Virus record (IMG/VR): IMGVR_UViG_3300025759_000892
Coordinates: 1-20,694 of that record
Length of the DNA stretch: 20,694 bases
Direction: 5' to 3' (one strand)
Source of the DNA: a virus
In this document: positions 2 to 20,267 of the stretch, one piece after another
Numbering within the stretch: position 1 is the first letter of the stretch
Layout of the letters: each line of letters begins with the position of its first letter
The notes under the pieces: generated by a model
Database searches by the model: none
What the model was told of the DNA's origin: nothing
The model's input: only the letters and a program-made list of their open reading frames with translations
Translations under genes and position numbers: made by a program

Positions 2-3000
2 GGAAACACCTACTTCGGTTCCACTTACGCCCTACGCAACTTTGCGCAGACAACCAGAACAACGGTTCACCTAGACAAGAAGATCGGCGGTGGCTACAAC
101 TACCCACCAGGGCACAGGCCAGACGCTCTATTCTCTATTACAAAGCGTGGAACAGCCGGCGCAGATCTACTAACAGTATCTAAAGGCAACTTCCAAGACC
201 TTGACATTGCTGAAACTGGCGAGCCCATCGTCACCATCAAACGCCGCTTTGACGATCCTCTCGGAACCGACAACCAGAACCAAAACGGCTACTCAACCGG
301 CAAAAACAGCCTACCGGCTGTCCTTTACAGTTCCTCAGCCGGAACAACCGGTTACAGATCCGAGACTACTGGAATCGAGTTTGCCGGCTTCCACAACGAC
401 TCTTACGGACCAGAATACGATGTTCCGATGCAGGGTCCGTTCTCCGACGCCCATGTCGGCGGTTACAGGCATCGCCACGAAGATCTTACCGGAGATCCTA
501 CTCTAACCTCCTCTACAACCAGAGCCGAGGCTTGGTACAGAAACGGCGCGAACTACTCATCTGCTGACTACAACTTTACAAGACCCTCTGCTTCTCCACA
601 GTACCGCAGAGGCGAAGGTGTCAAGCGCCCACTAAACATCGAAAACATCCAGCACAGGACCGGCTCCAACACGATCCGCATGGGCAACTTCGACAAGCGT
701 TACGAAGTTGTTATGACAAACTCTCGCAGAACAAATAACTCCCAGTTTGTTAAGAACGAGGGCTTCTCTACCGCCTCTGTGACCTCCGATGTTCTCGGCT
801 ATGTCGAAGCCCTTGTGGACTATGCAAAGCCCGTCAGAGCACGCACAGAGCACGTCATCGTCAACCGTTTCTCTGCTCCCGGCGGCCCAGAGACTGCTGG
901 TGACGCACAGGGTGGTGCGGGACTTGATTACGTTTCTTCCGAGTTGAGCCCTTACAACAACCTAAACTACAGAAATCTAACGATCCGCCAGCCTCTCCGC
1001 ACACTCCTTACCGAGCGCTCCGAGCAGTTTGGTCTTCGTTCTGGTTCAGCGGTTTCAGCCCTGGACTACACAAACGTCACGGCAAGTTTCCACAAAATCA
1101 ACAGAAACGGCATAAAGCAGTTGGAGTCAAGTTCTGCCGGCGGCATTGTGACTTCTTCGGTGTTCGACAACTACTATGTCCAGCACATGATCCCGCAGTC
1201 CGACTTCCAATACACTTGGATCACAGCGTCTTATGTCTCCACAGTCGGCGACATCTACGGCTACCTTCCTTACGACGGCTTGGCATCCTCCTCAACGGGG
1301 CTCATTAGCGCAATCAACTTTGTTAGTGGTAGTGAGATCACTATTGCTGGGAGTTTTGTTGATTTTGTCAATACCAACACAATAATTGTCGATCCAATAA
1401 ATACCTCTGATTTTACAACAGGCTATTCACTTCCTACTGATGTTGATGAATATGTTCCTGGGACATCGCTCGGAGCCCAGCGGAGTAAAGTCTTGAATGG
1501 ACTTGTTGCTCACCGTGGAGGAGTATACGGCTACAACACTTGGAAGCAACAGAGGGTTGGCGAAGGCAGGCTCCCACGCTACTTCCGCGAAAACAACATC
1601 TACACCCACACGCCAAAGGTCGGTGAACCAATAACAGTGACGACTCCTGGCGGAACAACAACGGTTCCAGTCAGAAATAGAGCAACCTTGGCTGTCACAC
1701 AGTCCTCTGTCGACGTTGCATTTAGGCCACTTTCCTACAAACTCGTCGTCAAAACGGGCGAAAACGACAGAGGCGAAGACATAAACTCGATCGCAGTTGT
1801 CAAAGCAAGTTTCGGAAACAACCTTGCGTTCTTCGAAGACTCCGACTTCAACGAGGCGATCGGGGCACAAATAGATTTCAGAGACACGCCTTACAGAACT
1901 CTCCTAAACCTCTACGGCAGAAAGAACAACCAAAACTCTTCACTTCCGATCAAGCGTCTTTCAGAACTCCGCTACTCAGAAGTTGTTTACCCATCCAGGG
2001 CAAACATCTACAGAGACATCATCCGAGGTAGAACAAGTTTTGAAAACAACTTCTGGCGTGATGCTCGTGCAGATCGTGTTACCAAGGGTGAGGCGAAGAA
2101 GCCAACAAACGTTGCGCAAGTTACAGTAAGCCAAAGCGCATGGGCATTAGATGCGCACATCAATTTTGTTTCTATTGCAGACACAGTTTTTTCTGGCGGT
2201 TTAGCAAGAAACAACGAAGACGGTTACAAGCCAGGAGAATTGCAAAACCTTTATGTGCACTTCCACGCAGGCACTTCTTCAAACGCTCAGCCAGGCTTGC
2301 TTTATTCCAGAAAACAGATCTATCCCTTAACTAGTGCTGTGGCCCCTGTGTGGGGTATGGAGATTCCAGAGATTGCAGCGTCATCAGATCCAAACCTTTT
2401 GCAGCCGAAATCAATGTTCCGTGGTGAAGCCCTCTGGGAAGCTGCTGCACAAGCCGGTGCTTACGAAGGAACGTCAAGCACATTCGTTTCTTCCGCAGCC
2501 AACCCGTTCTACGACGACTACGAGGCTTACTTTGCCGACATCAGAAGCAAGGGCAAGGACTACTCCATCATTCCAGAGTTCAGGATCTCCGAGCACATTG
2601 ACTTCTACGATGCAAACTCCGACGACTTCCTCAAAGAAAACCAGAAACTATTCTCCATTTTCGGAACACCAACCGCTTCAACAGTTCCGCAGAACAGTTC
2701 AGAGGCTGACTTCTTCAAGGTCTTTACAAACTCAGACTTTATGAAGCATTTTGAACTCATAAAGAACGACCACGAAAGAATCGCAGATCCACACGCCATC
2801 ACCTTGAAGTGCAAGGCAATCAAGAAGTTTGTTCCTTACGACGGCTTCTACCCTGCTGAAAGAACAACGGAGATGGTAGAACAGTTTATTCAAGATTATT
2901 CTGGTTCTGTAAATAAGATCAGCGGCGAAAACTTAGGAGAGGATGCTTCATTGAGAACGGTCTTAAAGCCGCTCTTTGCACCGGGCATTCTTTACAACAC

Positions 3001-5593: not shown

Positions 5594-5604
5594 AGGACTA
5601 AAAA

Positions 5605-6642
5605 ATGAAGTTTTTTGACTCAAAAGAAGAAGTTTTAGATGTCCAAATAACCAAGTATGGTCGTCATATGCTCTCACAGGGCAGGTGGAAGCCGACCTAC
5701 TATGCGTTTTTTGACGAAGGCGTTATGTATGACGCAAACTATGCCGGCATTACAACCGAAAATAAGAACTCCGCAGAGTCAAGAATCCAAGAGGACACTC
5801 CTTACCTAACCACGCAAACCAACTTTACGGGCCGTGAAGAATATTTGTTTGATGGTGTGGGCGATATCCAAGACAGGATGAGACTCGGTGTTTATGAAAA
5901 ACTAAATGTTATGCCACAAAGCCTCGGCACAACAACGCTCGAATCAACAAAGACACCCGCCTACAAGATCCGCTTCCTTGAAGGCAGGATCCAGAACCTT
6001 GAAAACTCCCTAACCGGCAATGTTCGCACGGCAAATACAGGTTCATCCACAATAACCAACTATTCCCAGCAACTTCTCAACATCCCACAGATCGATCTTG
6101 ACGTTGAGTTCAAGATCTCCACAGAGGAAGTCGGCTCAACTCCAAAGTTTGAGTTCGATCCAGCACTGACACAGGGCAGGACTTACCCAGACAACTACCA
6201 AGTTTTCGTTGGACCGGATCAACTTCTTTTCATCATCGAAGAAGAGAACGCCTCTTTTGACCACGAGAACTTTGAGATCGAGATCTTCGAAATAAAAGAC
6301 GAAACTGGCAACCTCGGCGAGCCAGTCCTCGAACAACTTTCTTTCATCAAGCCAGTTCAGACAGTTGTTGACAACAAACTTATTGACGAAAGAAGAGCAC
6401 AAATAATGGCAGGTCGTCCAAATGGTCAACTTCCAGAACTGGATCCTACTTACGTTGAATATTTCTTTGATGTCAATGTCGATTCCGAGATCGATCAAAA
6501 CATCATTTGTCGCTCTCTCAAGAAGGTCAAGTCCAAAGACCTATTCAACGACATTGAGGTTAACTGCCCAGACCTTAGAACAGTTATTAACACGAACATT
6601 TACGGCACCGATGCTCTATCCGATAACTGTCCAGATTATTAG
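5605..6642 (+). CDS. Virion structural protein, 345 aa, shares N-terminal domain with gene 12743
   Basis: ATG at 5605 is preceded by AAAGGA (5592-5597) at 7 bp spacing, overlapping the stop codon of the giant gene, so the two are probably co-translated. The N-terminus (residues 9-75) holds the pattern VLDVQITKYGRHMLSQG, then YYAFFDEGVMYD and later TPYLTTQTNF, which can be aligned with residues 10-75 of the protein encoded at 12743. The remainder is acidic and rich in Glu, Asp, Phe and Ile, including EEENASFDHENFEIEIFEIKD near residues 210-230. The last 45 residues carry three cysteines, two of them in NCPD motifs. I know of similar proteins among large uncultured phages but not their exact location. 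Likely a tail, neck or baseplate component; the specific function is not recognised. Confidence 0.75.
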   Translation: MKFFDSKEEVLDVQITKYGRHMLSQGRWKPTYYAFFDEGVMYDANYAGITTENKNSAESRIQEDTPYLTTQTNFTGREEYLFDGVGDIQDRMRLGVYEKLNVMPQSLGTTTLESTKTPAYKIRFLEGRIQNLENSLTGNVRTANTGSSTITNYSQQLLNIPQIDLDVEFKISTEEVGSTPKFEFDPALTQGRTYPDNYQVFVGPDQLLFIIEEENASFDHENFEIEIFEIKDETGNLGEPVLEQLSFIKPVQTVVDNKLIDERRAQIMAGRPNGQLPELDPTYVEYFFDVNVDSEIDQNIICRSLKKVKSKDLFNDIEVNCPDLRTVINTNIYGTDALSDNCPDY

Positions 6643-6648
6643 AAAGAA

Positions 6649-6656
6649 ACTATTTA
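6649..6656 (+). promoter_or_regulatory. Candidate late promoter element ACTATTTA upstream of gene 6676
   Basis: The octamer ACTATTTA lies in the 33-bp gap between genes 5605 and 6676, 27 bp before the ATG. The same octamer occurs in the gap before 12743, before the cluster at 17529 and before 19581. CTAT (6650-6653) could also pair with ATAG (6661-6664). No matching -35 box is apparent, which fits a phage-encoded late sigma factor. The role is inferred from recurrence and position only. Confidence 0.4.
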
Positions 6657-6675
6657 CACCATAGGACACTAATCG

Positions 6676-9600
6676 ATGGCAACAAGAGTAGATTTTTCAA
6701 GCGTATTTGACACTGTTCTCCCAAATGTTTACATTAGGAACGTGTCGCTTGCACACGCAAGTTTGGCCGATCCAAGGCGAGGTGTCGAATACGACGACGA
6801 TCAAAACTACGTCTTCGAAAAGAACGAGTTTGGTAAAAGGTTTTTTCCAAACTTGCCTCCACAAGATGTCCAACTCATAGCAGAGGGCAAGTTTTTAGAA
6901 GTCAAGGCACAGATCGTCATCAAGGACTACTACCGAGACAACCAGAAGAGCCTATGGTTTGAAAATGACGAGGTTCTAAACCTTCTAAAACTCCGCGTCC
7001 TCCTAAGCACCAAGGCACAACTAACAGACGATCTTCGAAATAGAGGTCTTACAGAGAAAAACATTGAAGACTCAAAGGCAGAAGGCGGCCTAAAAGAGCA
7101 GATCATCTCACTCAAAAAAGTCCATAAAACAAGCCTTATGGACTTTCAGAAGCAAGAAATAGACGGGAGAACGGTTTACACTCTTACTTACGATGTTTCT
7201 TTTAAGGTTTACCGTCCAAACCCAAGACATGTTGCTATGTTCGCAGGAACCTTTATGGATCTGAACGAATATGCCAGAACAAGAGAATCACTAGCACAGT
7301 CAAGGAGACGTTTCCTTTATGGCAACTTCGCTGGTCAACTGCTCGTAAATAAAGGCGAACGTCCACTAAACTCAAATGTTTTCATCCAACCTGACGGAAA
7401 AGCCTGGGCTGGACCGGTTCACTTCCAACAAGAAACAAACTCTTTTATGGCCGGTGCTTTCCACAGCAGTCAGCCACATCCCCGCCTCGAAAGAAAGGTT
7501 ATTGGGAACACAACAACGCTTGACTACCGCCTCCTAGACGGAGCAGAGGAAGCAACAACCCTCCTCCGACCCTACACACCACGCAGTCGTCGAAGAAGAA
7601 AGGCTATGTCGAGGCAAGAAGACTTCAAAAAGATTATGAAGTCCGCTTACATTTCAGAGCCAGAATACTCAACAAACCGTTTGGGCGAAGTCTTTATGAC
7701 TTTCCACATAAACTTTGACAAGATCATAAAAGAAAAGACACAGTTTGGCGCCATTGCAGTCAAAGCAGATCCAGATGCTCTAAATGATATTCGAGGTCTA
7801 ACTGAAATAAAAACAGTCAAGGTTTACAGAAACAGGGTAAAGAAAGGTTTCATACCAGGAACGTCAAACCTTGTGGATTTTGAAGACAGAACAGAGCTTA
7901 TTGCCGAAGCCACAGGCGCACAACTAGACGACGGTTTGAGTGTTCCGCTTGAAAAAACAGTCAACTCTTACGACGAAGAAGCAAGAAAGATCACAGTCGG
8001 CCAAATAAGAGAAATAGACTTGCAGTATCGAGGCGCAGTCGGCATTAGAACCTTTGGCGTTTCGGATCTCGAAATGGACAGAAAGACAGACGGCCTCTAT
8101 TCTTATTCAGTTGAGTTTGAGATGGTCGATGGAACAAAGGTCTTTGCGGTGCAAGAGTTGGACAAACTCATCCAGGCCAAGAACCTAATGATCGAATACC
8201 GCGATATGGCCTCCAAACCAGACAACACCGACGAAGAGACTGGTCTATTCACAGACGCTTTCCGCACCAGGGTCAACGAACTTTATGATGAACTCGCCCC
8301 AAGGGAAGCAACTGGCAGAAACAGAAGGGAACGACGCCAGGCAATCCGCCAGAGTTTCGTCAACCTTCCTTGGAATAATGCTGTCGCGGCCTACATTGAT
8401 GTTCTAGGCAACGCAACGGCTTTCAGCAACAGGAACATCGCCGGCCTCTCAACTCTTCTCTATTCGCTTGTCAGGCCCGACACGGGAAGTGTCGAAGGCA
8501 TCAACACAGTGATCGGTCTAATGGAAGCACTCGAAGCAAAAATGTCGAGCGCTCTTGGAAGAAAGGCTGTCCTTGTCAATGAGGTTGATTACGGCGACAG
8601 AACCAGGGCTTACAAAGGAAAACTGCCACAGAGAGATCTATTCATAGAAAAAAGGTTCCAAAAGATTTTCAACAGCAATGTTCAAAAAGATGTTGGTTTT
8701 GACTTCCTTGGAGACCTTGGATCCCGAGAGAACGCGGGACACCTCGAAATAACTGTCCAAGATATAAGAGGTCGTTTCGCAGACGAGAACAGAAAGTATT
8801 TCATCACCTCAGGTCTTGGTGGTGACTCACTCTTGCCAGAGGGACTAACCAAGGGTTTAGATCTGGAACCAAACTTCTTCTCTTTCCTAACACCAGCAAG
8901 AGCAAGGATGGGCAAGGGCGTCTCTCTTTCCACTCTACAAAAAGGAAACTCCATTTTAGACAAGGGCCAGTTTGACGTTATTTCTACAACTCGTCTCGCG
9001 ATGAACCCACGAGCAGCAGCACCGAACAAAAAACTTAACACACCAGCAGATCCGAGCAGCAACATAGGGGAACTCATGCCGCCTGTGAACTTCTCGGTTG
9101 GTTTCAACCCCACGCTTTCAAACTTGTCAGAGGAAGACTACACTATTTCCACAGCGATGTCTCCCATTATGGCTGCTGCCGGCATCTCTATTACGACACC
9201 TACTTTGGCAAATGCAGAGAGGCTTTCTTTCACTGCTCTAGACGGCCAGACAGAAGAAAAAGAAGATGGTGTTGATCCCAAGGAGATTCTAGGCGACAAC
9301 ACGAACTTCTCCATTGACCCCTTGCCCAAGAAGGATGTGGACGAAGAGGAAAATCTAACACCAGAACCAAAGCAGCAGTTCAACGAACTTGAAAAGATCT
9401 TTGTTGGTGCGATGGTCGATTCGGAAGACAGCCTTTTTGATGGCAAGAAGCGGGCAACTATTGAAAAAATCTCAAACCCAAGAAGGATCTTCTCCAAGGA
9501 TTTAGAAGTGGATGATGATTCTACTGCAAAGCAGGCAAGATTCTACAACGGACTTCCAAACCAAATCAAGTCACTTTTCCTAACACAGACACCATTGGCG

Positions 9601-10368
9601 AGAGTTAACTGGGTAGAAAGATACAGACAAACGGGTGAAGATATTCTAACAAGCCCCTCTTTGGCCAACTTCCTCTATTACAACTACAAGCACATAAACC
9701 GCATAGAAGTTCTTGTAGGTTTTGAAAAGGACGATCGAGGCGAACTACAAATCTCCAGACCAAAATATGAAAGACTAACAAGAAGACTTCTACAAGCATC
9801 ACGGACTTTTGCAAGACCTTTATTGTGTCGTATGACACCATATTCTAATGCGAGGCTTGGGATGAGAAAGAGCAAGAAGTTGAGTATGACGGAGTATGAT
9901 GAAAACTTTGTCATCATCCCAGACACCTCGCCGACTACAAACGTCGATGAAATCGCAGCAGAGACAGAGGCAGAAATAGAAGACTTTATTACGGAACTTC
10001 TTCCAGAAGATCCGACAACAACAGAACAGGGCGACGAACTATTTAGAAGTGTCCTTGTCGATCGTTTGACTGAATATTCAGAACTAAACTCAACAGGCAA
10101 GCGCTCCCTGAAGGTCGAGGTCGATAGAAGAATAATGATGGACGAGATCCCACCAGAGTTCCAAACAAACCTAGTTGTCTACCAGCCAAGAAACGTCACA
10201 AGAATCGGAACAAGTTTTGGTGATGATGGACAACCAAGAAGAACAGTCGTGGAAAGCAACGCAAGAGCGGCCTTGCAGCGCAGAGCAACAGGCACACCAG
10301 CAAGAACACAGACAGCACGAACCACGAGAACACCAAGTACAGGCGGAACTAGCGGAGGCGGTTACTGA
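6676..10368 (+). CDS. Large virion structural protein, 1230 aa
   Basis: ATG at 6676 follows an AGGA Shine-Dalgarno (6663-6666) and gives an N-terminus MATRVDFSSVFDTVLPNVYI. The protein is long, charged and without evident membrane segments or signal peptide. A basic cluster RPYTPRSRRRRKAM lies near residues 300-312. A region around residues 445-510 (REIDLQYRGAVGIRTFGVSDLEM, then DGLYSYSVEFEMVDGT) resembles, from memory, segments of giant uncharacterised virion proteins of environmental phages. The last ~40 residues are a low-complexity Arg/Thr/Gly/Ser tail ending in SGGGY, probably disordered. Its stop TGA shares one base with the start of the next gene (10368), so translation is probably coupled. 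Role in tail, baseplate or neck cannot be resolved from the sequence. Confidence 0.75.
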   Translation: MATRVDFSSVFDTVLPNVYIRNVSLAHASLADPRRGVEYDDDQNYVFEKNEFGKRFFPNLPPQDVQLIAEGKFLEVKAQIVIKDYYRDNQKSLWFENDEVLNLLKLRVLLSTKAQLTDDLRNRGLTEKNIEDSKAEGGLKEQIISLKKVHKTSLMDFQKQEIDGRTVYTLTYDVSFKVYRPNPRHVAMFAGTFMDLNEYARTRESLAQSRRRFLYGNFAGQLLVNKGERPLNSNVFIQPDGKAWAGPVHFQQETNSFMAGAFHSSQPHPRLERKVIGNTTTLDYRLLDGAEEATTLLRPYTPRSRRRRKAMSRQEDFKKIMKSAYISEPEYSTNRLGEVFMTFHINFDKIIKEKTQFGAIAVKADPDALNDIRGLTEIKTVKVYRNRVKKGFIPGTSNLVDFEDRTELIAEATGAQLDDGLSVPLEKTVNSYDEEARKITVGQIREIDLQYRGAVGIRTFGVSDLEMDRKTDGLYSYSVEFEMVDGTKVFAVQELDKLIQAKNLMIEYRDMASKPDNTDEETGLFTDAFRTRVNELYDELAPREATGRNRRERRQAIRQSFVNLPWNNAVAAYIDVLGNATAFSNRNIAGLSTLLYSLVRPDTGSVEGINTVIGLMEALEAKMSSALGRKAVLVNEVDYGDRTRAYKGKLPQRDLFIEKRFQKIFNSNVQKDVGFDFLGDLGSRENAGHLEITVQDIRGRFADENRKYFITSGLGGDSLLPEGLTKGLDLEPNFFSFLTPARARMGKGVSLSTLQKGNSILDKGQFDVISTTRLAMNPRAAAPNKKLNTPADPSSNIGELMPPVNFSVGFNPTLSNLSEEDYTISTAMSPIMAAAGISITTPTLANAERLSFTALDGQTEEKEDGVDPKEILGDNTNFSIDPLPKKDVDEEENLTPEPKQQFNELEKIFVGAMVDSEDSLFDGKKRATIEKISNPRRIFSKDLEVDDDSTAKQARFYNGLPNQIKSLFLTQTPLARVNWVERYRQTGEDILTSPSLANFLYYNYKHINRIEVLVGFEKDDRGELQISRPKYERLTRRLLQASRTFARPLLCRMTPYSNARLGMRKSKKLSMTEYDENFVIIPDTSPTTNVDEIAAETEAEIEDFITELLPEDPTTTEQGDELFRSVLVDRLTEYSELNSTGKRSLKVEVDRRIMMDEIPPEFQTNLVVYQPRNVTRIGTSFGDDGQPRRTVVESNARAALQRRATGTPARTQTARTTRTPSTGGTSGGGY

Positions 10369-12689
10369 TGTCGACAAAGAAGATCACTATTGTCAACGAA
10401 GAACTTTTAGCAAGAGACGCAAGTTCAGATTTAGTTCGCGACCTTCACGCAGGACGTTGGGGAGTTTTTACAGGTGAAGGCATCAAGTATTCCCCAATAA
10501 CAGACACTGACATCAAAATAGAAACTACGATCCTACCTCCATCAAGAGGACCAATAGACGACAGGCCGATTTCTCCAGGTACTTACCAAGCCTTACGAAA
10601 GCATACAGAAATGGTTGAGTTGGTTCAGAACTTACCATTGGACGAAAGAAGAACACCAGAGGACAATGCAAACTGGATCAGCCAAGTCGAGGGCCTTGTA
10701 GACATTGGCGTCCCCCATTATGACTTTGCAACCACAATGATCACAGAGCCAGTCGAAGAAGAAACCCAAAACTCAACAACTGACGAAGGCTCCCTAAAGC
10801 AAGGCGCAACTTTCCACTACAACTTCTTTGATAGAGAGTATGAAGACGAACTTGCAACGATCACGCAGCACTATTTCATACCAAACGTCTACCAAGATGT
10901 AGACCGCTTGGAAGCCAGAACAGAGCCAGGGGAAGAACCAGAATACGCCCTCCGTGCCCCGTTCAAGAGAAAACTAATAAGAAACAGACGACGCCCCGTC
11001 CAAAGTCTTTCAACAGTCAATCAAATAGTTCCAGCCGAGAACGGTGGAAAGTTTAGAGATTATTCACCAGATTTCTACCCAATGCACGCCCAAGTGGTCG
11101 TAAACACAAAGAGCGTCGGAGGCCGAAAGATTTCTTTGGCCCTCAAAGACTGTGCTGCCGAGATCAACCTAACAAGAGACCTTGAAGGCGTTGCAACCCC
11201 AGGTGCTCCAAGTTCTATTGCGAGAGAAAACATAACACTCTCAAGCACGATCATCAATGCCGATGGTGTCAGAGAAACCTTTTCTGAAGACATCGATGCA
11301 ATAAAGACTGTTAACCTTGCACTATGGGGAGACGAAGACGCTCCTGGTTGGGTCAACGCAAATCCGGTTCCACCAGAGTTTTCATTCATTGGACCAGAAA
11401 CCTACTCCTCAGCACAGTCATTATTTGGCTTGCCGTCTCTATTGGGCGCAAATGTTGCTCACCTTTACGATCGCCTAAGTGAGATCGCAACAGAGCACGG
11501 CAGAACGATGCAAGACATTATGAATGGTGTTCCTGCCTATTCAGAAACTGTCTTGTTCAAGGTCGAAAAGTTCCTCGGCCCAGTTAGTTCTATCACGACT
11601 TCCACACCAATAAAGACGTTCCATTTCTCAAACGCTGGCAGTATTGACATTGATAAGATTGAAAAAAGAATAAAAGTTGTTGACACGCAGGTCAAGTACG
11701 GCGAAACCTATTCTTATGTTGTTACGGCTTATCAGGCAGTTGTTGGATCAGCGTATCAATACGCCAACCTTACTATTTTAGAAGAGTCGCGCCCAAGAAG
11801 AGCATCGGTCACGACAGCGATTGAGACCATAATAAAACTTGTTGAAATCCCTCTTTATGTCTCTACTGGCGCGATTTACGATTACCCACCACTTGCCCCA
11901 CAGGTCGAGTTCCTACCACTAATCGGATCTCCAAGAAAGTTAAAACTACACTTCCAAATGTCTTCTGGTTTTGAGGACCAAGTTCCAATAGCACTTAACC
12001 AAGCAGATCAGGATATTTTTGATCAAATGGCGATCAACCAAGGGCGAACAGTTGGAGGTCCATTGACATTTGGTTCAGACAATGCACCGGTCGCTTATGA
12101 GATCTACAGGGTAAACGAACCACCAGTTAGTTATGATGACTTCAATCGCAGAAGAATAGCCAGAGTCTCCACTCTTTCAAGCGATGCAAAAACGACAAGA
12201 CAAGCATCCTCTGCTGCCTTTGTTTTAAACCAGGCTTTAAACCGCAAGTTCTACTACATGTTCAGAACTGTTGATTACCACGGCGGACTCTCAAACCCAA
12301 GCCCGGTTTTTGAAATCGAACTCCTTGGAGATACAGGAGTTAGTTTCCCAGTTATTCGTGAATATGAGTTTGGGCAAATAAGCCCCAAAACAGAGACAAA
12401 GATGGCAAGAAAGTTCGTTCAAATAACACCTCGAATCACACAAGCCATCGTAAACGAAGAGATTTCAGGACTACTTAATCCAGACGGAACTCTTGGAAAC
12501 GCAAGAAATAACAGAGAGATCGTTCTTGGAGTAGAAGACGAAGCTTTATTCGGGCAGGATGCCTCTACATCACACGCGATTCGCAGAGGCAAGAGATTCA
12601 AAATAAGATTTACCTCGAAGACGACAGGAAAGAAAGTCGATTTGAACGTTTCTTTCAAAACAAAACGAGTTCGAGGCGAGACAGAATAG
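10368..12689 (+). CDS. Virion structural protein with Fn3-like repeats, 773 aa
   Basis: The start ATG overlaps the previous stop codon by one base (tgATG), the classic arrangement for termination-reinitiation. Residues ~390-470 contain FKVEKF..., later VDTQVKYGETYSYVVTAYQA, and residues ~565-650 contain PVAYEIYRV followed by FYYMFRTVDYHGGLSNPSPV. Both have the alternating aromatic beta-strand pattern of fibronectin type III-like or related immunoglobulin-fold modules common in phage tail and baseplate proteins. The N-terminal ~370 residues match no fold that I recognise. Neighbouring genes are all structural and the same strand. Fn3 assignment is by eye and moderate; a virion surface or connector role is inferred. 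Confidence 0.7.
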   Translation: MSTKKITIVNEELLARDASSDLVRDLHAGRWGVFTGEGIKYSPITDTDIKIETTILPPSRGPIDDRPISPGTYQALRKHTEMVELVQNLPLDERRTPEDNANWISQVEGLVDIGVPHYDFATTMITEPVEEETQNSTTDEGSLKQGATFHYNFFDREYEDELATITQHYFIPNVYQDVDRLEARTEPGEEPEYALRAPFKRKLIRNRRRPVQSLSTVNQIVPAENGGKFRDYSPDFYPMHAQVVVNTKSVGGRKISLALKDCAAEINLTRDLEGVATPGAPSSIARENITLSSTIINADGVRETFSEDIDAIKTVNLALWGDEDAPGWVNANPVPPEFSFIGPETYSSAQSLFGLPSLLGANVAHLYDRLSEIATEHGRTMQDIMNGVPAYSETVLFKVEKFLGPVSSITTSTPIKTFHFSNAGSIDIDKIEKRIKVVDTQVKYGETYSYVVTAYQAVVGSAYQYANLTILEESRPRRASVTTAIETIIKLVEIPLYVSTGAIYDYPPLAPQVEFLPLIGSPRKLKLHFQMSSGFEDQVPIALNQADQDIFDQMAINQGRTVGGPLTFGSDNAPVAYEIYRVNEPPVSYDDFNRRRIARVSTLSSDAKTTRQASSAAFVLNQALNRKFYYMFRTVDYHGGLSNPSPVFEIELLGDTGVSFPVIREYEFGQISPKTETKMARKFVQITPRITQAIVNEEISGLLNPDGTLGNARNNREIVLGVEDEALFGQDASTSHAIRRGKRFKIRFTSKTTGKKVDLNVSFKTKRVRGETE

Positions 12690-12707
12690 CATAAAACATT
12701 TTCATTA

Positions 12708-12722
12708 CACTATTTATTAGTG
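12708..12722 (+). promoter_or_regulatory. Candidate late promoter ACTATTTA within a small inverted repeat before gene 12743
   Basis: In the 53-bp gap after gene 10368, ACTATTTA (12709-12716) sits 34 bp before the ATG at 12743. It is embedded in the perfect 5-bp inverted repeat CACTA-TTTAT-TAGTG. There is no T run after it, so it is not a convincing terminator. Because the octamer recurs ahead of other genes, I favour a promoter or operator element over an RNA hairpin. Confidence 0.4.
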
Positions 12723-12742
12723 AAACCTTCAGGAGACAACGA

Positions 12743-13681
12743 ATGGGATTCCTAGATAATTCAGGCGACATTATCTTAGACGCTGTTTTAACCGACACTG
12801 GTCGTATGAGATTAGCAAAGGGCGACGGAAGTTTTAAGATTGTAAAGTTTGCCCTTGGCGATGACGAGATCAACTACGAGATCTACAACAAGAACGATAG
12901 TAGAGGCTCGGCCTACTACGACCTAGAGGTGCTACAGACACCAGTCCTAGAGGCGTTCACCGATAACGCTGCTTCTATGAAGTCAAAGTTAATCTCTATT
13001 CCAAGAAACAACCTACTTTACCTTCCGATCGTCAAACTAAACACAACATTTGACTCTTCTACCGCGAAGCATTCTTCAGGCGACTTTCTCATTGCAGTCG
13101 ATACTGAGACCGAGGATGAATTGTTCACAGATGCTTCTGGTGTCTCTATCGACGGCGTTCTCATGGGTGAGACACCAACCCGCTCTGGCAACCGCATTCG
13201 CCTCGACCAAGGACTAGACACAACTGAGATTTCGCCTGCTCGTGCTCTAGACCCGCTTCTACTTGAGACACAGTACGCCATCGAAATCGACAACCGTCTT
13301 GGAAGCATCGTTGAACAAACAGATGGTGTTAAAGCTTCTGTCTCCTTTGTTGATGATGATTCAATCGCCACCTACTACCTCTCAAGGGGCACAGACAACG
13401 AGTTCGTAATGGATATTCAGGACACCAGCGAAAACACTTCTGCTGGTTCTATCAAGGGTCCGAGAGGTACAAAGCTTGTCTTCAAGGTTCAGTCTTCACT
13501 TGAATTAAACACAAGTGATTATCTTTTTGATACCATAGGAACAACAGATTCCACAATTGCAAGTAAGTCTGGTGTTGCGGGGACAGTAAGCTTTAAAACA
13601 ATCAAGTCCACTATTCGCGTAACCGGCGTGAATACTGGTTATCGTATCGACATTCCGGTCAAGTTCGTCAAGAAAGTATAA
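12743..13681 (+). CDS. Virion structural protein, 312 aa, shares N-terminal domain with gene 5605
   Basis: ATG at 12743 is preceded by AGGAG (12731-12735) at good spacing. The N-terminus MGFLDNSGDIILDAVLTDTG followed by RMRLAKGDGSFKIVKFALGDDEINY is a pattern I recall as frequent in structural proteins of environmental myoviruses. Residues 10-75 align with residues 9-75 of the protein from 5605: LDxxxT..GR.xL..G, then a (F/Y)A(F/L)xDxxxxY core and a TPxL motif. The rest is beta-rich, acidic, and ends in a strand-like segment GYRIDIPVKFVKKV. Cysteine-free. It lies upstream of two paralogous structural genes with a 16-bp gap, so the three probably form one transcription unit starting at the motif at 12709. 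Exact virion position unknown. Confidence 0.75.
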   Translation: MGFLDNSGDIILDAVLTDTGRMRLAKGDGSFKIVKFALGDDEINYEIYNKNDSRGSAYYDLEVLQTPVLEAFTDNAASMKSKLISIPRNNLLYLPIVKLNTTFDSSTAKHSSGDFLIAVDTETEDELFTDASGVSIDGVLMGETPTRSGNRIRLDQGLDTTEISPARALDPLLLETQYAIEIDNRLGSIVEQTDGVKASVSFVDDDSIATYYLSRGTDNEFVMDIQDTSENTSAGSIKGPRGTKLVFKVQSSLELNTSDYLFDTIGTTDSTIASKSGVAGTVSFKTIKSTIRVTGVNTGYRIDIPVKFVKKV

Positions 13682-13697
13682 AGGATAGGATAACATA

Positions 13698-14819
13698 ATG
13701 GCTACAACATTTAAGAATTTCTTAAGCAACGACCTAGCAAACACAAGAACGCTTCTTCACGAGGCTATTCCGATCACTGGTTCTATCGTTTCTGGAACTT
13801 ACGCAAGCGACGGAAACATCAAGACCTACGGTCACGGAATGTTCAAGAGTGTCTACGACTACCCTTACCTATCCTCTTCTGCTAACCACATCTTCGACAT
13901 CACCGCTGGATACGCCAACGCCTCTGCCCTTTCTGGCGCAAGCAACACGCAGAACGCCAAGAAGATCAATCTTTACAACCAGATGGCCCAGTATCTTGTC
14001 GGCTACGACGACACAGGCAGCATCAAACAGTTCACGATGCCAACTGACGGCACGGTAATGAACGACTGCTTCTTTGTTCCATTTGCTCGCCTCCTTTCCA
14101 AAGACGAGATTAAGAAGGGTTCTGTAACACTTGAGTTTGGTATGTCCTCTTCTTTCGCACAAGACGGCACAACGCACACTATTCGTGGACAACTTATTGA
14201 CTATTCCGGTTCTAACGGATATTATGTTGATTCACCAGCCGGCGAGTACGGCGTTCTTTATGGAACATCTTCTGCTCTCGGCACAGCAACAAGAGTGTTC
14301 GACGCCGAAACACTTGGCAATGCATCAACTATGCCAGCAATTGGGCTAGTCTATTATCAAGCAGGTATTGCTGTTGTATCGGCTTCTCTTCTAAATTCCA
14401 CCAACAGAGGGGGCGCCCTATTAGCTTTCGGAAGTGGTGGCCCCGGTGACTTGTCACTTGGGTCAACTTTTGGTCAAACTGGTTTTGATGCCATCACAGG
14501 CTCAACGCTTGACACCTTCTCGGCCGGCATTCTAAACCGAGTTTACAACGTCTCATTCAACAACACGACCGAACTAAACTCAACTATCTACTTCTGCCGC
14601 GCAAGCCACAGTGACTTCAATTACAGTTCCAACCCGACCTACCTAAGTGGAAGCAAGATCCGCGTCAAGACTCGTTCAGAGGACGCTCCTGTTTCTTACA
14701 TTACGACGGTTGGTCTTTATTCCGCAGACAACGAACTTCTTGCTGTTGCCAAACTTTCCGAGCCGCTTCGCAAGGATCCAACAAACGAGATTACACTTCG
14801 CGTAAGGCTAGACTACTAA
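13698..14819 (+). CDS. Virion structural protein, 373 aa, paralogue of the next gene
   Basis: ATG at 13698 follows an AGGA (13687-13690) Shine-Dalgarno. The body contains DEIKKGSVTLEF (near residue 138), and the C-terminus holds SNPTYLSGSKI, then ITTVGLYSADNELLAVAKLS and ends in EITLRVRLDY. The same elements in the same order occur in the 411-aa product of 14832, so the two are diverged tandem paralogues. It is rich in Ser, Thr, Gly, Tyr and Asn, lacks membrane segments, and looks like a beta-structured virion protein. The segment PAIGLVYYQAGIAVVSASLL parallels IAGVVLYNEGLILLTGSWAL of the next protein; I recall this type of motif from structural proteins of environmental T4-like phages. A repeated tail, baseplate or fibre component is likely but not proven. 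Confidence 0.75.
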   Translation: MATTFKNFLSNDLANTRTLLHEAIPITGSIVSGTYASDGNIKTYGHGMFKSVYDYPYLSSSANHIFDITAGYANASALSGASNTQNAKKINLYNQMAQYLVGYDDTGSIKQFTMPTDGTVMNDCFFVPFARLLSKDEIKKGSVTLEFGMSSSFAQDGTTHTIRGQLIDYSGSNGYYVDSPAGEYGVLYGTSSALGTATRVFDAETLGNASTMPAIGLVYYQAGIAVVSASLLNSTNRGGALLAFGSGGPGDLSLGSTFGQTGFDAITGSTLDTFSAGILNRVYNVSFNNTTELNSTIYFCRASHSDFNYSSNPTYLSGSKIRVKTRSEDAPVSYITTVGLYSADNELLAVAKLSEPLRKDPTNEITLRVRLDY

Positions 14820-14831
14820 GGGGGTGCTACG

Positions 14832-16067
14832 ATGCCTCTCTACAAGTTTGGGGCGGGTGATGTTTTTTACAACCAGATAAAGGCACACCCAAGTAGTTCC
14901 TTCTTCGTTTACAACGGCAAGATCTATTACAACGACAAGGCAACGGAACCCGGCGCTAATGTAAGCAATGTCGGCGGTGTTCCAACTGGCCACGTCAGTC
15001 TTTATGAAATGAACGTTGACCGTGTTGCTGCGTCAACTGGTCGCTTCATCGGCGGCTCGTCTTCCATCTCAGGCGAGAACGTAGACGACACAGGACTTAT
15101 TTACCCATTTGTCTACAAGGGCTTCGATAAGGTTGCTTTCAAAACCATAAAGCGAAGAAACTTCGTCCACGACTATTCAAACGGAGATGTGATAACAGGA
15201 AGTTATCAAATGTCTGCGTCCATCGTCCGCTCCTTCTACGACTCAGGAGACGGCTTCTTTGGCTCCAACCTAACAGGAAGCGCCATAAAGAACTCCCTTG
15301 ACTATGCTGCCCGTTTGGGCCAACATTACATCTTCGCCTCTGGTGCTACGGAAGTCGTCAACCTTATTGACATTCCTTCTATTTTCTATGGATCTGAAAT
15401 CAAAAAGGGCTCTGTTGTCCTTGACCTCTACATCACCGGCACACTTGCGGCAAGGCTAACGGACAAGTTCTACAATGGAGCCCTCGTCCAAGAGTCAGGC
15501 ACCTACGCCTCAGCAAACGACGGCCAGATCGCAGGCGTCGTCCTCTACAACGAGGGTCTTATTCTTCTAACTGGATCCTGGGCTTTGGATGCCACGCTTG
15601 AATTAGAAGACAGAAACTACTTGGGAACAGACATAGTGTCTGACATCTCTTGGAAACATTTTGCTCTTGGTGCAAACTCTTTTTACAGCGCGTCTGTTTC
15701 CAACTCTTCTGCCTCTTATTCACTCAACTTCGCAGGAACAAACAAGATCCCAACGGTCACGATGTTGGCAAATGCTAACCGAGGCGAACTAAATTTCACA
15801 AACAACCCGACCTACATTGAATACGGCCAGATCCCCTACCACCCAACCACAGGCTCCAACTTCTACAAAGAGCAGCCGCTAACCATCAAAAACATCCACT
15901 CCTCCTCTTACACAGATCCAACTGGCTCTCTCAAAAAAACAACATACATCACCAAGATCGGCATTTATGACGAAGACAAGAAGCTCATTGGCATCGCCTC
16001 TGTTGCAAAGCCAGTGAAGAAACTTGAAGACCGAGACTTGACATTTAAACTAAAACTTGATATGTGA
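14832..16067 (+). CDS. Virion structural protein, 411 aa, paralogue of the previous gene
   Basis: ATG at 14832 lies 12 bp after the previous stop, with an AAGGGGG Shine-Dalgarno (14818-14824) overlapping that stop codon. It shares with the 13698 product the core EIKKGSVVLDLYITG (near residue 195), GVVLYNEGLILLTGSW, the NNPTYIEYGQI segment and a C-terminal ITKIGIYDEDKKLIGIASVA followed by LTFKLKLDM. The N-terminal ~90 residues are unique to this copy and give it its extra length. No signal peptide or membrane segment is seen. A TGA stop at 16065-16067 is followed 4 bp later by the start of the resolvase gene, so the structural and DNA-processing genes appear to be in one transcript. Confidence 0.75.
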   Translation: MPLYKFGAGDVFYNQIKAHPSSSFFVYNGKIYYNDKATEPGANVSNVGGVPTGHVSLYEMNVDRVAASTGRFIGGSSSISGENVDDTGLIYPFVYKGFDKVAFKTIKRRNFVHDYSNGDVITGSYQMSASIVRSFYDSGDGFFGSNLTGSAIKNSLDYAARLGQHYIFASGATEVVNLIDIPSIFYGSEIKKGSVVLDLYITGTLAARLTDKFYNGALVQESGTYASANDGQIAGVVLYNEGLILLTGSWALDATLELEDRNYLGTDIVSDISWKHFALGANSFYSASVSNSSASYSLNFAGTNKIPTVTMLANANRGELNFTNNPTYIEYGQIPYHPTTGSNFYKEQPLTIKNIHSSSYTDPTGSLKKTTYITKIGIYDEDKKLIGIASVAKPVKKLEDRDLTFKLKLDM

Positions 16068-17528: not shown

Positions 17529-17981
17529 ATGAAGATCACAAAGTCAGAACTCAGAAAGATCATCAAGGAAGAGTTGGCAAACACACTTTCTGAAGTGGGC
17601 ACCATTGAGCCTTATGTCGGCCCGCAACCGAAAAATAAGAGAAACTATGCAAAACTTCTAATGCGCATTGCTCCACTTGAGGGCTTGGGCGATCAGATCA
17701 GAAAGAAGCTTGGTTTTAACCAGAAAGAATATGAAAACTGCGCAGATCCGCGATACAAGACAAGATTCGTAGAAGGCGAACAGTGGGAATCCACCAAGGC
17801 AAAGGTTGGTCTTGCGCTTAGGCGTCTTCCTACTGCGGCCAAGCAGAGCATCATGTATGACGAGATCATGGGTCGTCTTGCCCAAGACAAGCTAGATCGT
17901 TGTGAAATCTATGATTTTACATCTGCTTTTGACGAACTATATGTTGAGTTAGAGGGCTTGGCAAAGGATGGAGATCTATGA
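17529..17981 (+). CDS. Leader-peptide protein 1: candidate packaged head protein, 150 aa
   Basis: ATG at 17529 follows a strong AAAGGAG (17514-17520). Residues 1-16 are MKITKSELRKIIKEEL, the leader shared by five consecutive genes, and L20-S21-E22 follows, a match to the (L/I)-x-E cleavage consensus of T4-type prohead proteases. The mature part would start at residue 23. The remaining ~128 residues are predicted mostly helical and charged, with two cysteines (C72 in YENCADP, and C126 in LDRCEIYDF) and no membrane segment. I do not recognise the body. The stop overlaps the next start by four bases (ATGA), so they are translationally coupled. Proposed as a protein packaged into the head; this rests on the leader only. 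Confidence 0.7.
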   Translation: MKITKSELRKIIKEELANTLSEVGTIEPYVGPQPKNKRNYAKLLMRIAPLEGLGDQIRKKLGFNQKEYENCADPRYKTRFVEGEQWESTKAKVGLALRRLPTAAKQSIMYDEIMGRLAQDKLDRCEIYDFTSAFDELYVELEGLAKDGDL

Positions 17982-18373
17982 AGATCACGAAGGCGCAACT
18001 TAGAAATTTTATCAAGGAAGAGTTAGCCTCCAATCTGTCAGAAGCCGATGTCCTTGACTTCCCAGGAGACAGGGTAAGTCCTGGTGCTTCCGGTGAAGGC
18101 GAAGGCGAGGTTGTCCCTCTTAAAAAGGACGAACCAGCCGGTCTTACTCTTACGGATAAAGAAATGGCAATAGGCGTCTATGGCATGGTTCTTGGCTTCC
18201 TTATTGGAACAAAGGCTCGTCGCGATGTTGATATTGAGGAGATCCAGGGTGGGAACCCAGAACTTTTCCAGGCGCTTATAAATGCCGTTGCGGCAGATCA
18301 GATCGCATTTGCACAAGACTGGATGAACATGCCCGAGGGCGAATTTAGAGCGAAGCATTTACCAGGCTTCTAA
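17978..18373 (+). CDS. Leader-peptide protein 2 with hydrophobic segment, 131 aa
   Basis: The leader is MKITKAQLRNFIKEEL with L20-S21-E22 after it. Residues 23-60 are a Gly/Glu/Pro-rich linker. Residues 63-79 (MAIGVYGMVLGFLIGTK) form a hydrophobic segment that could enter a membrane. From residue 81 (RRDVDIEEI) through QDWMNMPEGEF (113-123) the protein aligns with residues 61-110 of the next protein (RNDIDIKEL ... KDWTNSRMSKDEI), so the two are paralogues beyond the leader. ATG overlaps the previous stop by four bases. No known family recognised. A membrane-active protein delivered from the capsid, or a structural head protein, are both possible. Confidence 0.65.
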   Translation: MKITKAQLRNFIKEELASNLSEADVLDFPGDRVSPGASGEGEGEVVPLKKDEPAGLTLTDKEMAIGVYGMVLGFLIGTKARRDVDIEEIQGGNPELFQALINAVAADQIAFAQDWMNMPEGEFRAKHLPGF

Positions 18374-18385
18374 AGGAATAGAACT

Positions 18386-18745
18386 ATGAAGATTACAAAG
18401 ACACAACTCCGTCAGATCATCAAGGAAGAGCTTGACGCCACTATGGAAGAAGGAATGTTCGGAGATTTGGGTGCTAAAATCTCAGCCGGAATCAAAGAAA
18501 TTCTTATGTTCCCTACTAATCTAGTAGCTGCTGGCATGTTGGTTTACCTTGACACTGTGGCACCAAGAAACGACATTGACATAAAAGAACTAGCAAATGA
18601 TAACGCAGCGATGGACGCATTCCTTAAGAATCTCACTTCAGGTAATGGGAAAGCATTCGGCAGCCAGCTTGCAAAAGATTGGACAAACTCAAGAATGAGC
18701 AAAGATGAGATTATGTCTAAGTATTTCTCATCTAGTGAAGCTTGA
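18386..18745 (+). CDS. Leader-peptide protein 3, paralogue of protein 2, 119 aa
   Basis: ATG at 18386 is preceded by AAAGGA (18372-18377). The leader is MKITKTQLRQIIKEEL, followed by M20-E21-E22. Residues 39-59 (ILMFPTNLVAAGMLVYLDTVA) are hydrophobic, at the same place relative to the (R)xDIDIxEL motif as in protein 2. The C-terminal half aligns with protein 2 but with a different insertion (LTSGNGKAFG) before KDWTNSR. Its leader is identical over 38 bases with that of the next gene. No catalytic motif is visible. Function unknown; grouped with the candidate internal head proteins because of the leader and position. Confidence 0.65.
   Translation: MKITKTQLRQIIKEELDATMEEGMFGDLGAKISAGIKEILMFPTNLVAAGMLVYLDTVAPRNDIDIKELANDNAAMDAFLKNLTSGNGKAFGSQLAKDWTNSRMSKDEIMSKYFSSSEA
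18393..18430 (+). repeat. 38-bp direct repeat, copy 1 (leader of gene 18386)
   Basis: Bases 18393-18430 are identical to 18791-18828. They encode residues from T4 to E15 of the shared leader, including identical synonymous choices (for example CTC CGT CAG for Leu-Arg-Gln). The flanking codons differ. A shorter core, ATCATCAAGGAAGA, is also found in the leaders of the genes at 17529 and 19194. Confidence 0.85.
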
Positions 18746-18783
18746 TCTCAACTGATCTAACAGACTAGTAAGGAAACAAGACT

Positions 18784-19197
18784 ATGAAATTTACAAAGAC
18801 ACAACTCCGTCAGATCATCAAGGAAGAGTTAGAAACTCTACAAGAAGACGGACACGAAGATGTTTCTTCGGCAGTCAGAAAACTAAAGACCTCTATTGAG
18901 GACGCCACAGAGATCCTACAAGGTCTTCAAGCCCACCAGGGCGATCTTCCTTCTTGGTGGATGAGCAAGGTAACACTTGCTTCTGACTACCTAAACAAGT
19001 GCCGTGATTATTTTCTTGTTTCCGGCGAAGTGATGGAAGAAGAAGTCGTTGATGAAAAGATAGAAAAGGCTGACGGAGGTTATTTCGTGACCTCCAAGTC
19101 AGGGAAGCGTCTTTCAAAGAAGCCGCACGAAACAAAGAAAGCCGCCCTCGCTCAGTTGGGCGCTGTTGAAGCCAGCAAGGCAAGGAGAGGCAAATGA
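18784..19197 (+). CDS. Leader-peptide protein 4 with basic C-terminal motif, 137 aa
   Basis: ATG at 18784 follows TAAGGA (18769-18774). The leader is MKFTKTQLRQIIKEEL, followed by L19-Q20-E21. Residues 26-80 form a helical region DVSSAVRKLKTSIEDATEIL then GDLPSWWMSKVTLASDYLNK, a motif I recall from many marine phage proteins of unknown function. Residues 99-136 are a basic motif beginning GGYFVTSKSGKRLSKKP and ending AALAQLGAVEASKARRGK, also recurrent in environmental phages. An acidic linker (EVMEEEVVDEKIEK) separates the two. The strongly basic C-terminus would suit contact with packaged DNA, as for T4 internal proteins; that is inference. The stop overlaps the next start by four bases. Confidence 0.7.
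   Translation: MKFTKTQLRQIIKEELETLQEDGHEDVSSAVRKLKTSIEDATEILQGLQAHQGDLPSWWMSKVTLASDYLNKCRDYFLVSGEVMEEEVVDEKIEKADGGYFVTSKSGKRLSKKPHETKKAALAQLGAVEASKARRGK
18791..18828 (+). repeat. 38-bp direct repeat, copy 2 (leader of gene 18784)
   Basis: Identical to 18393-18430; see that entry. It lies at the same position in the coding frame of a gene whose body is unrelated to that of copy 1, so the leader has been moved or homogenised independently of the rest of the gene. Confidence 0.85.
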
Positions 19198-19451
19198 AAA
19201 TAACAAAGACTAGACTAAAAGAGATCATCAAGGAAGAACTTGATATGATGAGCGAGGGCAGCGAAGTTGATGCGATCCTTGCTATGCTCGATCCAGAGAC
19301 GCTTAGCGCCATTAAGATCGTCGCCCAGGCAGCAGGAAAGATGGCTCCTGGCGCTGCTGGTGTCGCTGCAACCACTTTTGCTGTGGATCAACTAAGGCAA
19401 GCGGTAAGCAAGATCAAGGGTGGCAAGCCCGAGGGTGAAGAAAACGCTTGA
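19194..19451 (+). CDS. Leader-peptide protein 5, small Ala/Gly-rich, 85 aa
   Basis: ATG at 19194 overlaps the previous stop (ATGA) and has AAGGAG (19182-19187) inside the previous gene. The leader is MKITKTRLKEIIKEEL followed by M19-S20-E21. The remaining ~64 residues contain an Ala/Gly-rich stretch (AQAAGKMAPGAAGVAATTFAVDQL, residues ~47-70) typical of tightly packed helices or a short membrane-inserting segment, and a Lys/Gly/Glu-rich tail. No family recognised. It is the last gene of the leader cluster; its stop codon TGA (19449-19451) is part of the -35 box of the promoter that follows. Confidence 0.65.
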   Translation: MKITKTRLKEIIKEELDMMSEGSEVDAILAMLDPETLSAIKIVAQAAGKMAPGAAGVAATTFAVDQLRQAVSKIKGGKPEGEENA

Positions 19452-19566: not shown

Positions 19567-19572
19567 AAGGAG
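19567..19572 (+). promoter_or_regulatory. Ribosome-binding site AAGGAG deciding the endonuclease start
   Basis: AAGGAG ends at 19572 and is 8 bp from ATG 19581. An in-frame GTG at 19572 overlaps this site and so cannot be the start used with it. The ATG also puts the IYMV strand right at the N-terminus, as in GIY-YIG enzymes. Confidence 0.75.
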
Positions 19573-19580
19573 TGTTTGCT

Positions 19581-20267
19581 ATGGCTTTAATTTATATGGT
19601 TCTCTTTCCAAACGGCAAGAAGTATATTGGAAAGACTGAACGCGAGTTATCCGATCGCATGAAAGAACATAAACACCATTCCAAGAATTCAAATCGGCCC
19701 CTTTATAACGCAATAAGAAAATATGGTTGGGACAATTTGGAATGGATAGTGCTTGACAAGGACGACAATTTTGATTACATTAACAGTAGAGAAAGGGCTC
19801 TAATAGACGAGCACGGCTGCCTTAAGCGAGAAAATGGGTACAACTTGCGAGAAGGTGGAGACGGAGGTCGCCACGCCCAAGACACAAAAGATAAAATTTC
19901 TATTTCTAATGCTGGTGAGAAGAATGGTATGTTTGGCCGAAAAGCGTGGAATAGTGGAAAGAATTTATCTAAACAACACATAGAGAGACTGCGTGAAGCA
20001 CACAAGGGGCAAATACCTTGGAACAAGGGAAAGAAGTTGCCACCAAAAGGCCCGCGAAACGAAGAAACAAAGAACAAAATAAGTAAAGCGAATAGTGGGG
20101 AGAATAACGGACAAGCAAAATTGACTTGTGAAAAAGTAATAGAGATAAGAGAAGCATATTCTAATGGCGGTTTAACTCAACGCCAATTGGCAGAAAAATA
20201 TAGAGTATCTCAATCCGTAATAAACGGCATAGTAAATAATAAAACCTGGAGGAACTGTGGGGATTAG
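19581..20267 (+). CDS. Free-standing GIY-YIG homing endonuclease with NUMOD3 and HTH, 228 aa
   Basis: The N-terminal nuclease domain (residues 3-95) contains IYMVLFPNGKKYIGKT, with likely catalytic R26 (SDRMKEH) and E71 (INSRERALI), and ends with GYNLREGGDGG, typical of phage GIY-YIG homing enzymes. Residues ~110-175 contain NUMOD3-like DNA-binding repeats (KNGMFGRKAWNSGK, then IPWNKGKKLP and NEETKNKISKANSG). Residues ~184-226 form a helix-turn-helix (LTQRQLAEKYRVSQSVINGI). It would nick or cut a specific phage DNA site and spread its own gene by recombination. There is no intron signature, so it appears free-standing, of the Seg type. Base use is more AT-rich (ATA, AAT, AGA codons) than its neighbours, consistent with acquisition. 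It overlaps the gp47-like gene by 11 bp. Confidence 0.9.
   Translation: MALIYMVLFPNGKKYIGKTERELSDRMKEHKHHSKNSNRPLYNAIRKYGWDNLEWIVLDKDDNFDYINSRERALIDEHGCLKRENGYNLREGGDGGRHAQDTKDKISISNAGEKNGMFGRKAWNSGKNLSKQHIERLREAHKGQIPWNKGKKLPPKGPRNEETKNKISKANSGENNGQAKLTCEKVIEIREAYSNGGLTQRQLAEKYRVSQSVINGIVNNKTWRNCGD
20248..20252 (+). promoter_or_regulatory. GGAGG ribosome-binding site inside the endonuclease gene, for the gp47-like gene
   Basis: GGAGG is followed after 4 bp by GTG at 20257. It lies in the last codons of the homing endonuclease gene, so the endonuclease insert has preserved or recreated the translation signal of the downstream recombination gene. Confidence 0.7.

What the first reader, a model, noticed from the sequence alone, without database searches (positions are those of the whole stretch)
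17529..19451. Five consecutive genes carry one detachable leader: candidate capsid-targeting signal
Seen: five adjacent small proteins start with almost the same 16 residues (consensus MKITKTQLRQIIKEEL) and then differ. Each has hydrophobic-x-E at residues 19-22: LSE, LSE, MEE, LQE and MSE. Known: T4 internal proteins carry a short N-terminal capsid-targeting sequence beginning MKTYQEFI and cut by the prohead protease after (L/I)-x-E. Inference: the leader may be an address tag directing different cargo into the prohead and removed on maturation, so the cluster would be a cassette of packaged, probably ejected, proteins. Alternatives are docking to a common scaffold or localisation within the infected cell.
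Basis: partly seen in the sequence, partly recalled or inferred. Interest (0 to 1): 0.75.

Follow-up and report, generated by a model that had tools for sequence, protein, structure and literature searches.

The report
Cleavable head-packaging tag on phage proteins
Five neighbouring genes of an uncultured T4-like phage make different small proteins that share one short N-terminal tag ending in a prohead-protease-type cut motif, and the same tag sits on hundreds of otherwise unrelated proteins in related phages, so it is most likely an address label that loads cargo into the phage head and is then cut off.

Summary
Observation confirmed: five consecutive ORFs (17529-19451) share a 16-residue leader followed by hydrophobic-x-E at residues 19-22. 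The leader is widespread: 431 distinct proteins in 312 body clusters from viral contigs, typically 5-18 per long contig. [LIM]-x-E falls at residues 18-27 in 219/312 leaders against 314/1763 ordinary N-termini, with Glu strongly preferred over Asp (219:30; bodies 34:59); conservation stops after that Glu. A T4 gp21-type prohead protease (Peptidase_S77) is on 31/49 leader-bearing virus records (4/28 random contigs) and on all 31 leader-bearing records where a T4-like terminase was found. A near-identical relative of the window has terminase, portal and the start of S77 6-12 kb downstream of the cluster. Major capsid proteins of eight leader-bearing contigs keep LL[RK]E before the conserved shell region. 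In an ORF4 homologue the L-x-E stays with the domain despite a ~48-residue insertion after the leader. Best reading: a capsid-targeting propeptide that works like T4's CTS, with an unrelated sequence and on a much larger scale. Packaging and cleavage are inferred; ejection is only plausible. New variant of a known kind.

The parts
17529..17981 (+). leader protein ORF1, 150 aa: leader 1-16, LSE at 20-22, body from V23
   Evidence: leader-profile score 37.3 bits in the relatives' copy
17978..18373 (+). leader protein ORF2, 131 aa: LSE at 20-22, body from A23; resembles ORF3
   Evidence: start codon overlaps ORF1 stop (ATGA)
18386..18745 (+). leader protein ORF3, 119 aa: MEE at 20-22, body from G23
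   Evidence: 44.0 bits
18784..19197 (+). leader protein ORF4, 137 aa: LQE at 19-21; DGHEDV...LPSWW helical domain; C-terminal domain matching phrog_3684
   Evidence: model with helix 5-21 then separate domains (mean pLDDT 66)
19194..19451 (+). leader protein ORF5, 85 aa: MSE at 19-21, body from G22
   Evidence: start codon overlaps ORF4 stop
17529..17594 (+). leader (proposed capsid-targeting propeptide) of ORF1
17978..18043 (+). leader of ORF2
18386..18451 (+). leader of ORF3
18784..18846 (+). leader of ORF4
19194..19256 (+). leader of ORF5

Best explanation
The shared N-terminus is a capsid-targeting propeptide. It probably folds as a short helix that binds a prohead core or scaffold protein and so pulls whichever protein it is fused to into the assembling head. 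During head maturation the phage's gp21-type (S77) protease cuts after the hydrophobic-x-Glu at residues 18-27 and leaves the mature body inside the head. The five genes are one cassette in a repertoire of such cargo proteins; delivery into the next host cell is a likely further step. Shown by sequence: the shared leader, its spread, the L-x-E enrichment, Glu over Asp, the protease and T4-like head genes in the same records, L-x-E motifs at the capsid-protein junction. Inferred: core binding, the actual cut, retention in the head, ejection.
For: (1) One leader on 312 body clusters. (2) [LIM]xE at residues 18-27 in 219/312 against 314/1763 non-leader N-termini; with [LIVMF], 248/312 against 429/1763. 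(3) hxE:hxD is 219:30 at the leader end against 34:59 at residues 50-59; in T4 an Asp at that position inhibits processing (PMC9026906). (4) The residue after the Glu is A/G/S/N/T in 99/219 against 91/343 body sites. (5) S77 on 31/49 leader virus records against 4/28 random contigs; 16/31 against 1/23 at 35-100 kb; no S78-type protease in 20 records; S77 in all 31 leader-bearing records where a T4-like terminase was found. (6) G014, with the five leader genes, has a sixth leader gene, then terminase, portal and S77, itself with LTE near its N-terminus. (7) MCPs of eight leader contigs carry LL[RK]E before the conserved shell region, and the gene upstream carries SLNE and SLSE motifs in most of them. 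(8) An ORF4 homologue in L061 has about 48 extra residues after the leader yet keeps LNE directly before the domain. (9) The AAA_33 kinase domain of one leader protein starts at residue 28, just past the leader. (10) Propeptide length (18-22) is close to the 10-19 of T4 internal proteins.
Against: No virion proteomics and no leader-core complex. 93/312 leaders lack [LIM]xE at 18-27 (64 lack even [LIVMF]xE). The motif favours ends at residues 18, 19, 21 and 22, one face of a helix, so part of the enrichment could be helix design. G006 (147 kb) and G008 (101 kb) carry many leaders but no S77; they also lack a detectable T4-like terminase, so they may be fragments. S77 was found in 3 of 5 random contigs of 100 kb or more, so for large contigs the association adds little. 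Leader records are partly related, so counts are not independent. The leader shows no detectable similarity to T4's CTS.
Confidence: 0.82

Rival explanations
1. The leader is a permanent docking helix: it binds a scaffold, portal or other virion protein but is not cut, and the L-x-E is just part of the helix.
For: The leader is modelled as a helix; the L-x-E positions follow helical phase; 30% of leaders lack the motif.
Against: Strong Glu-over-Asp bias, conservation stopping right after Glu, small following residues, S77 in every leader record with a terminase, and L-x-E staying with the ORF4 domain when it is displaced from the leader.
Confidence: 0.1
2. The tagged proteins are core or scaffold components like T4 gp67/gp68 that are degraded or expelled during maturation, not delivered cargo. 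The leader is still a core-targeting, cleaved propeptide (compatible with the first half of the best explanation).
For: Many are small; in G003 a leader-bearing 138-aa protein lies in the head module two genes after the protease.
Against: Bodies include enzyme domains (kinase, L,D-transpeptidase, acetyltransferase, DnaJ) and form 312 clusters, unlike a conserved structural core.
Confidence: 0.2
3. The leader directs proteins to a place in the infected cell, such as the membrane or a replication compartment, unrelated to the head.
For: Only that an N-terminal helix could do this; no specific support found.
Against: The cut motif, the linkage to a gp21-type protease and T4-like head genes, and clustering near the head module (45/73 leader sites within 20 kb against 23 expected) are not predicted.
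Confidence: 0.05

Closest known systems
Phage T4 capsid-targeting sequence of internal proteins IPI, IPII, IPIII
   Same: Short N-terminal segment shared by otherwise different proteins, ending in [LI]-x-E (IAE|A at 10 in IPII and IPIII, ITE|A at 19 in IPI); gp21-type S77 protease; Glu, not Asp, at the cut
   Different: Sequence unrelated (leader profile gives no match to T4 IPs); longer, predicted helical leader; 5-18 tagged proteins per long contig against three IPs in T4; often clustered near the head module; enzyme domains among the cargo
Propeptides of giant phages SPN3US and phiKZ cut by their prohead proteases
   Same: Prohead protease removes N-terminal propeptides, two of them 20-24 residues long in SPN3US (PMC10052503)
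   Different: Most SPN3US propeptides are 111-254 residues; whether they share one leader was not tested here
Flavobacterium phage vB_FspM_immuto (cultured)
   Same: T4-like head module with S77 protease; leader-like N-termini MKKSQLRQIIKEAL, MKKSQLREIIRKEL and MKKSELVKLIKEEL; a second repeated leader of the form FDLKKFLVENKLTxNSxLLKE
   Different: Leader-like copies are few and weak by the profile; a second, different leader is used
Encapsulation peptides of bacterial microcompartments
   Same: From memory only: short terminal amphipathic helices that load cargo into a protein shell
   Different: Not removed by a prohead protease; not tested here; analogy only

Membership tests
T4-type capsid-targeting sequence (CTS) | N-terminal position, about 10-19 residues, shared by proteins with different bodies | tested here: met
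   Residues 1 to 18-22 on 312 body clusters; slightly longer than in T4
T4-type capsid-targeting sequence (CTS) | Ends in [LI]-x-E, Asp disfavoured at the last position | tested here: met
   [LI]xE 198/312 against 284/1763 at 18-27; hxE:hxD 219:30. In the window ORF3 and ORF5 have Met in place of Leu/Ile
T4-type capsid-targeting sequence (CTS) | gp21-type (S77) prohead protease in the same genome | tested here: met
   for the window's own phage seen at the contig end of a near-identical relative (G014), not in the window itself
T4-type capsid-targeting sequence (CTS) | Sequence homology to the T4 CTS (MKTYQEFIAE) | tested here: not met
   Leader profile gives no match to T4 IPI, IPII or IPIII
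T4-type capsid-targeting sequence (CTS) | Directs the protein into the prohead core | not testable with these tools
   Needs packaging assay or proteomics
T4-type capsid-targeting sequence (CTS) | Removed by the protease; mature body in the virion and ejected | not testable with these tools
   Needs virion mass spectrometry
Peptidase_S77 (gp21), for the relatives' protease | Match over the Pfam cut-off | tested here: met
   Up to 116.7 bits against a cut-off of 27; a relative's copy is 44.9% identical to an annotated prohead protease of phage Mel-JY01

The most novel reading that the evidence does not exclude
Uncultured T4-like phages use a general, sequence-defined loading code: one swappable propeptide puts a large and fast-changing set of proteins, including kinases, cell-wall enzymes, acetyltransferases and chaperone-like proteins, into the head and delivers them with the DNA. 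The leader profile would then be a genome-wide detector of injected phage proteins.
Probability: 0.5. Interest if true: 0.82.

Novelty: new variant of a known kind. Interest (0 to 1): 0.66.

Why it matters
If right, a 20-residue motif predicts from sequence which of the many unknown proteins of these phages are packed in the virion. That would give hundreds of candidate injected proteins at once, make the suggestion from T4 work that the CTS lets phages load varied proteins into their heads testable at scale, and offer a second, independent tag for loading cargo into phage heads.

Tried and rejected
Named phages searched for the leader: tblastn with a 22-aa consensus found nothing, ORF3 only weak hits, ORF4 nothing; the profile found weak matches only in immuto among five isolates tested. 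Papers searched for the leader sequence: none. Pfam and PHROGs on the five proteins: only ORF4's C-terminus matched, phrog_3684 of unknown function. Chance similarity rejected (312 body clusters). A bacterial origin is unlikely: the pattern occurred on only two contigs in a collection of 84,980 species genomes, and one of them has the same length (101,404 bases) as a leader-bearing IMG/VR contig. S78-type protease rejected. G006 and G008 looked like counter-examples because they lack S77; they also lack T4-like terminase, portal and MCP matches, and their ten largest proteins tested show no other head module, so they are uninformative. A simple hydrophobic-moment calculation of the leader was not distinctive against shuffles, so strong amphipathicity is not claimed.

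Full report
What is there. The five ORFs between 17529 and 19451 are tightly packed (two start/stop overlaps) and share a 16-residue N-terminus with ten invariant positions. Hydrophobic-x-E lies at residues 20-22, 20-22, 20-22, 19-21 and 19-21. The bodies then differ, except that ORF2 and ORF3 look related. DNA of the leaders is 67-92% identical among the five, so the protein sequence is what is kept.

How widespread. After a profile search of all loci I have 431 distinct leader proteins in 312 body clusters. Long contigs carry several each: for the contigs of 77 kb or more that I read in full, 5-18 with an ATG at the expected place. In 84,980 bacterial and archaeal species genomes the pattern occurs on two contigs only; one has exactly the length of a leader-bearing viral contig, and the genome behind the other also holds an S77 gene and a T4-like terminase on one contig. 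Among 28 random viral contigs only one, itself S77-positive, carried the leader.

The end of the leader. Over body clusters the consensus is MKITK[ST]QL[RK]QIIKEE[LI]xxVLxE, and conservation falls away after residue 22. [LIM]xE ends at residues 18-27 in 219/312 leader proteins but in 314/1763 other N-termini of the contigs read in full. At that place Glu outnumbers Asp 219:30, while at residues 50-59 the ratio is 34:59. The following residue is A, G, S, N or T in 99/219 against 91/343 at body sites. T4 gp21 cuts after L/I-x-E, and an Asp at the cut position inhibits processing but still allows targeting (PMC9026906). In an ORF4 homologue in L061 about 48 residues are inserted after the leader, yet L-N-E still stands directly before the shared DGHxDV domain. 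The AlphaFold model of ORF4 has a helix at 5-21, then separate domains, at modest confidence (mean pLDDT 66).

The protease and the head. Peptidase_S77, the T4 gp21 family, is over the curated cut-off in 13/20 and 19/30 leader-bearing records, against 4/28 random contigs; without the one bacterial bin this is 31/49 against 4/28, Fisher p = 4e-5. By size the contrast is 16/31 against 1/23 at 35-100 kb and 15/17 against 3/5 at 100 kb or more, so it rests mainly on the smaller contigs. All 31 leader-bearing records where a T4-like terminase was found also have S77, and the records without S77 lack that terminase too. G014, which carries the five window genes, continues with a sixth leader gene (31980), terminase (34115), portal (35704) and the start of S77 (39465 to the contig end). 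A related protease is 45% identical to an annotated prohead protease of a named phage. MCPs of eight leader contigs have LL[RK]E followed by A, S, T or Q before the conserved shell region, and the adjacent scaffold-like gene keeps SLNE and SLSE motifs in most of them. On eight long contigs 45 of 73 leader sites lie within 20 kb of the head module, against 23 expected if scattered and the contigs taken as circular, or 38 against 19.5 if linear.

The cargo. Most bodies match nothing. Those with a Pfam match include AAA_33 kinase, L,D-transpeptidase, GNAT acetyltransferase, DnaJ and pentapeptide repeats. The kinase domain starts at residue 28, just past the leader.

Mechanism. I think the leader works like the T4 CTS: it binds the prohead core, is cut by the S77 protease, and leaves the body in the head. 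Core binding, cutting, retention and ejection are inferred. The leader profile does not match the T4 internal proteins, whose own motifs (IAE|A, ITE|A) came out as expected in the control. So it is not shown to be a homologue of the T4 CTS, though it looks like a functional counterpart.

What is known and what is new. Reviews of T4 already say that T-even internal proteins are diverse with only a conserved CTS (PMC3012670) and that the CTS may be a way for T4-like phages to load various proteins (PMC9026906). New here are an unrelated leader sequence, its spread over hundreds of protein clusters in uncultured T4-like phages, and arrays of up to ten or more tagged genes.

Limits. Related contigs are not independent. 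Thirty per cent of leaders lack [LIM]xE at the expected place. The protease is seen in relatives, not in the 20.7 kb window. No experimental data on any leader-bearing virion were found.

Noticed in passing
window 19572-20267: A GIY-YIG-like homing endonuclease ORF (T4 has SegB of that family) sits between the leader cluster and an SbcD-like nuclease gene that runs off the window end.
   Followed up: no
window 428-16067: Seven large ORFs, probably virion proteins, give no convincing PHROG match (best E 0.024), and the six of them scanned against Pfam give none either, so these structures are poorly described.
   Followed up: partly
L428 28807-29355 and 42632-43932 (NC_055915.1 103806-104354, 117631-118931): The cultured phage immuto carries a second repeated leader, FDLKKFLVENKLTxNSxLLKE, on several proteins: possibly another capsid-targeting class.
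   Followed up: partly
L061 12318-13025 (-) and L428 36185-36655: A domain with a PSAYxSGA[IL]V[KR]CRK motif follows a leader-like N-terminus and L-x-E in both an uncultured phage and immuto.
   Followed up: no
L196 3966-4385, L180 12349-12750 and L198 11349-11765: A small protein beginning with a leader-like segment (MKKSEIKKIIKPIVKECI, or MKLTRAKLKDLIKECI in G003) lies directly after the prohead protease in G017 and G002 and two genes after it in G003: candidate partner or core protein.
   Followed up: no
window 18386-18433 and 18784-18831: ORF3 and ORF4 share 92% of leader DNA over 48 bases while their bodies show no clear similarity, suggesting the leader spreads as a DNA module.
   Followed up: no
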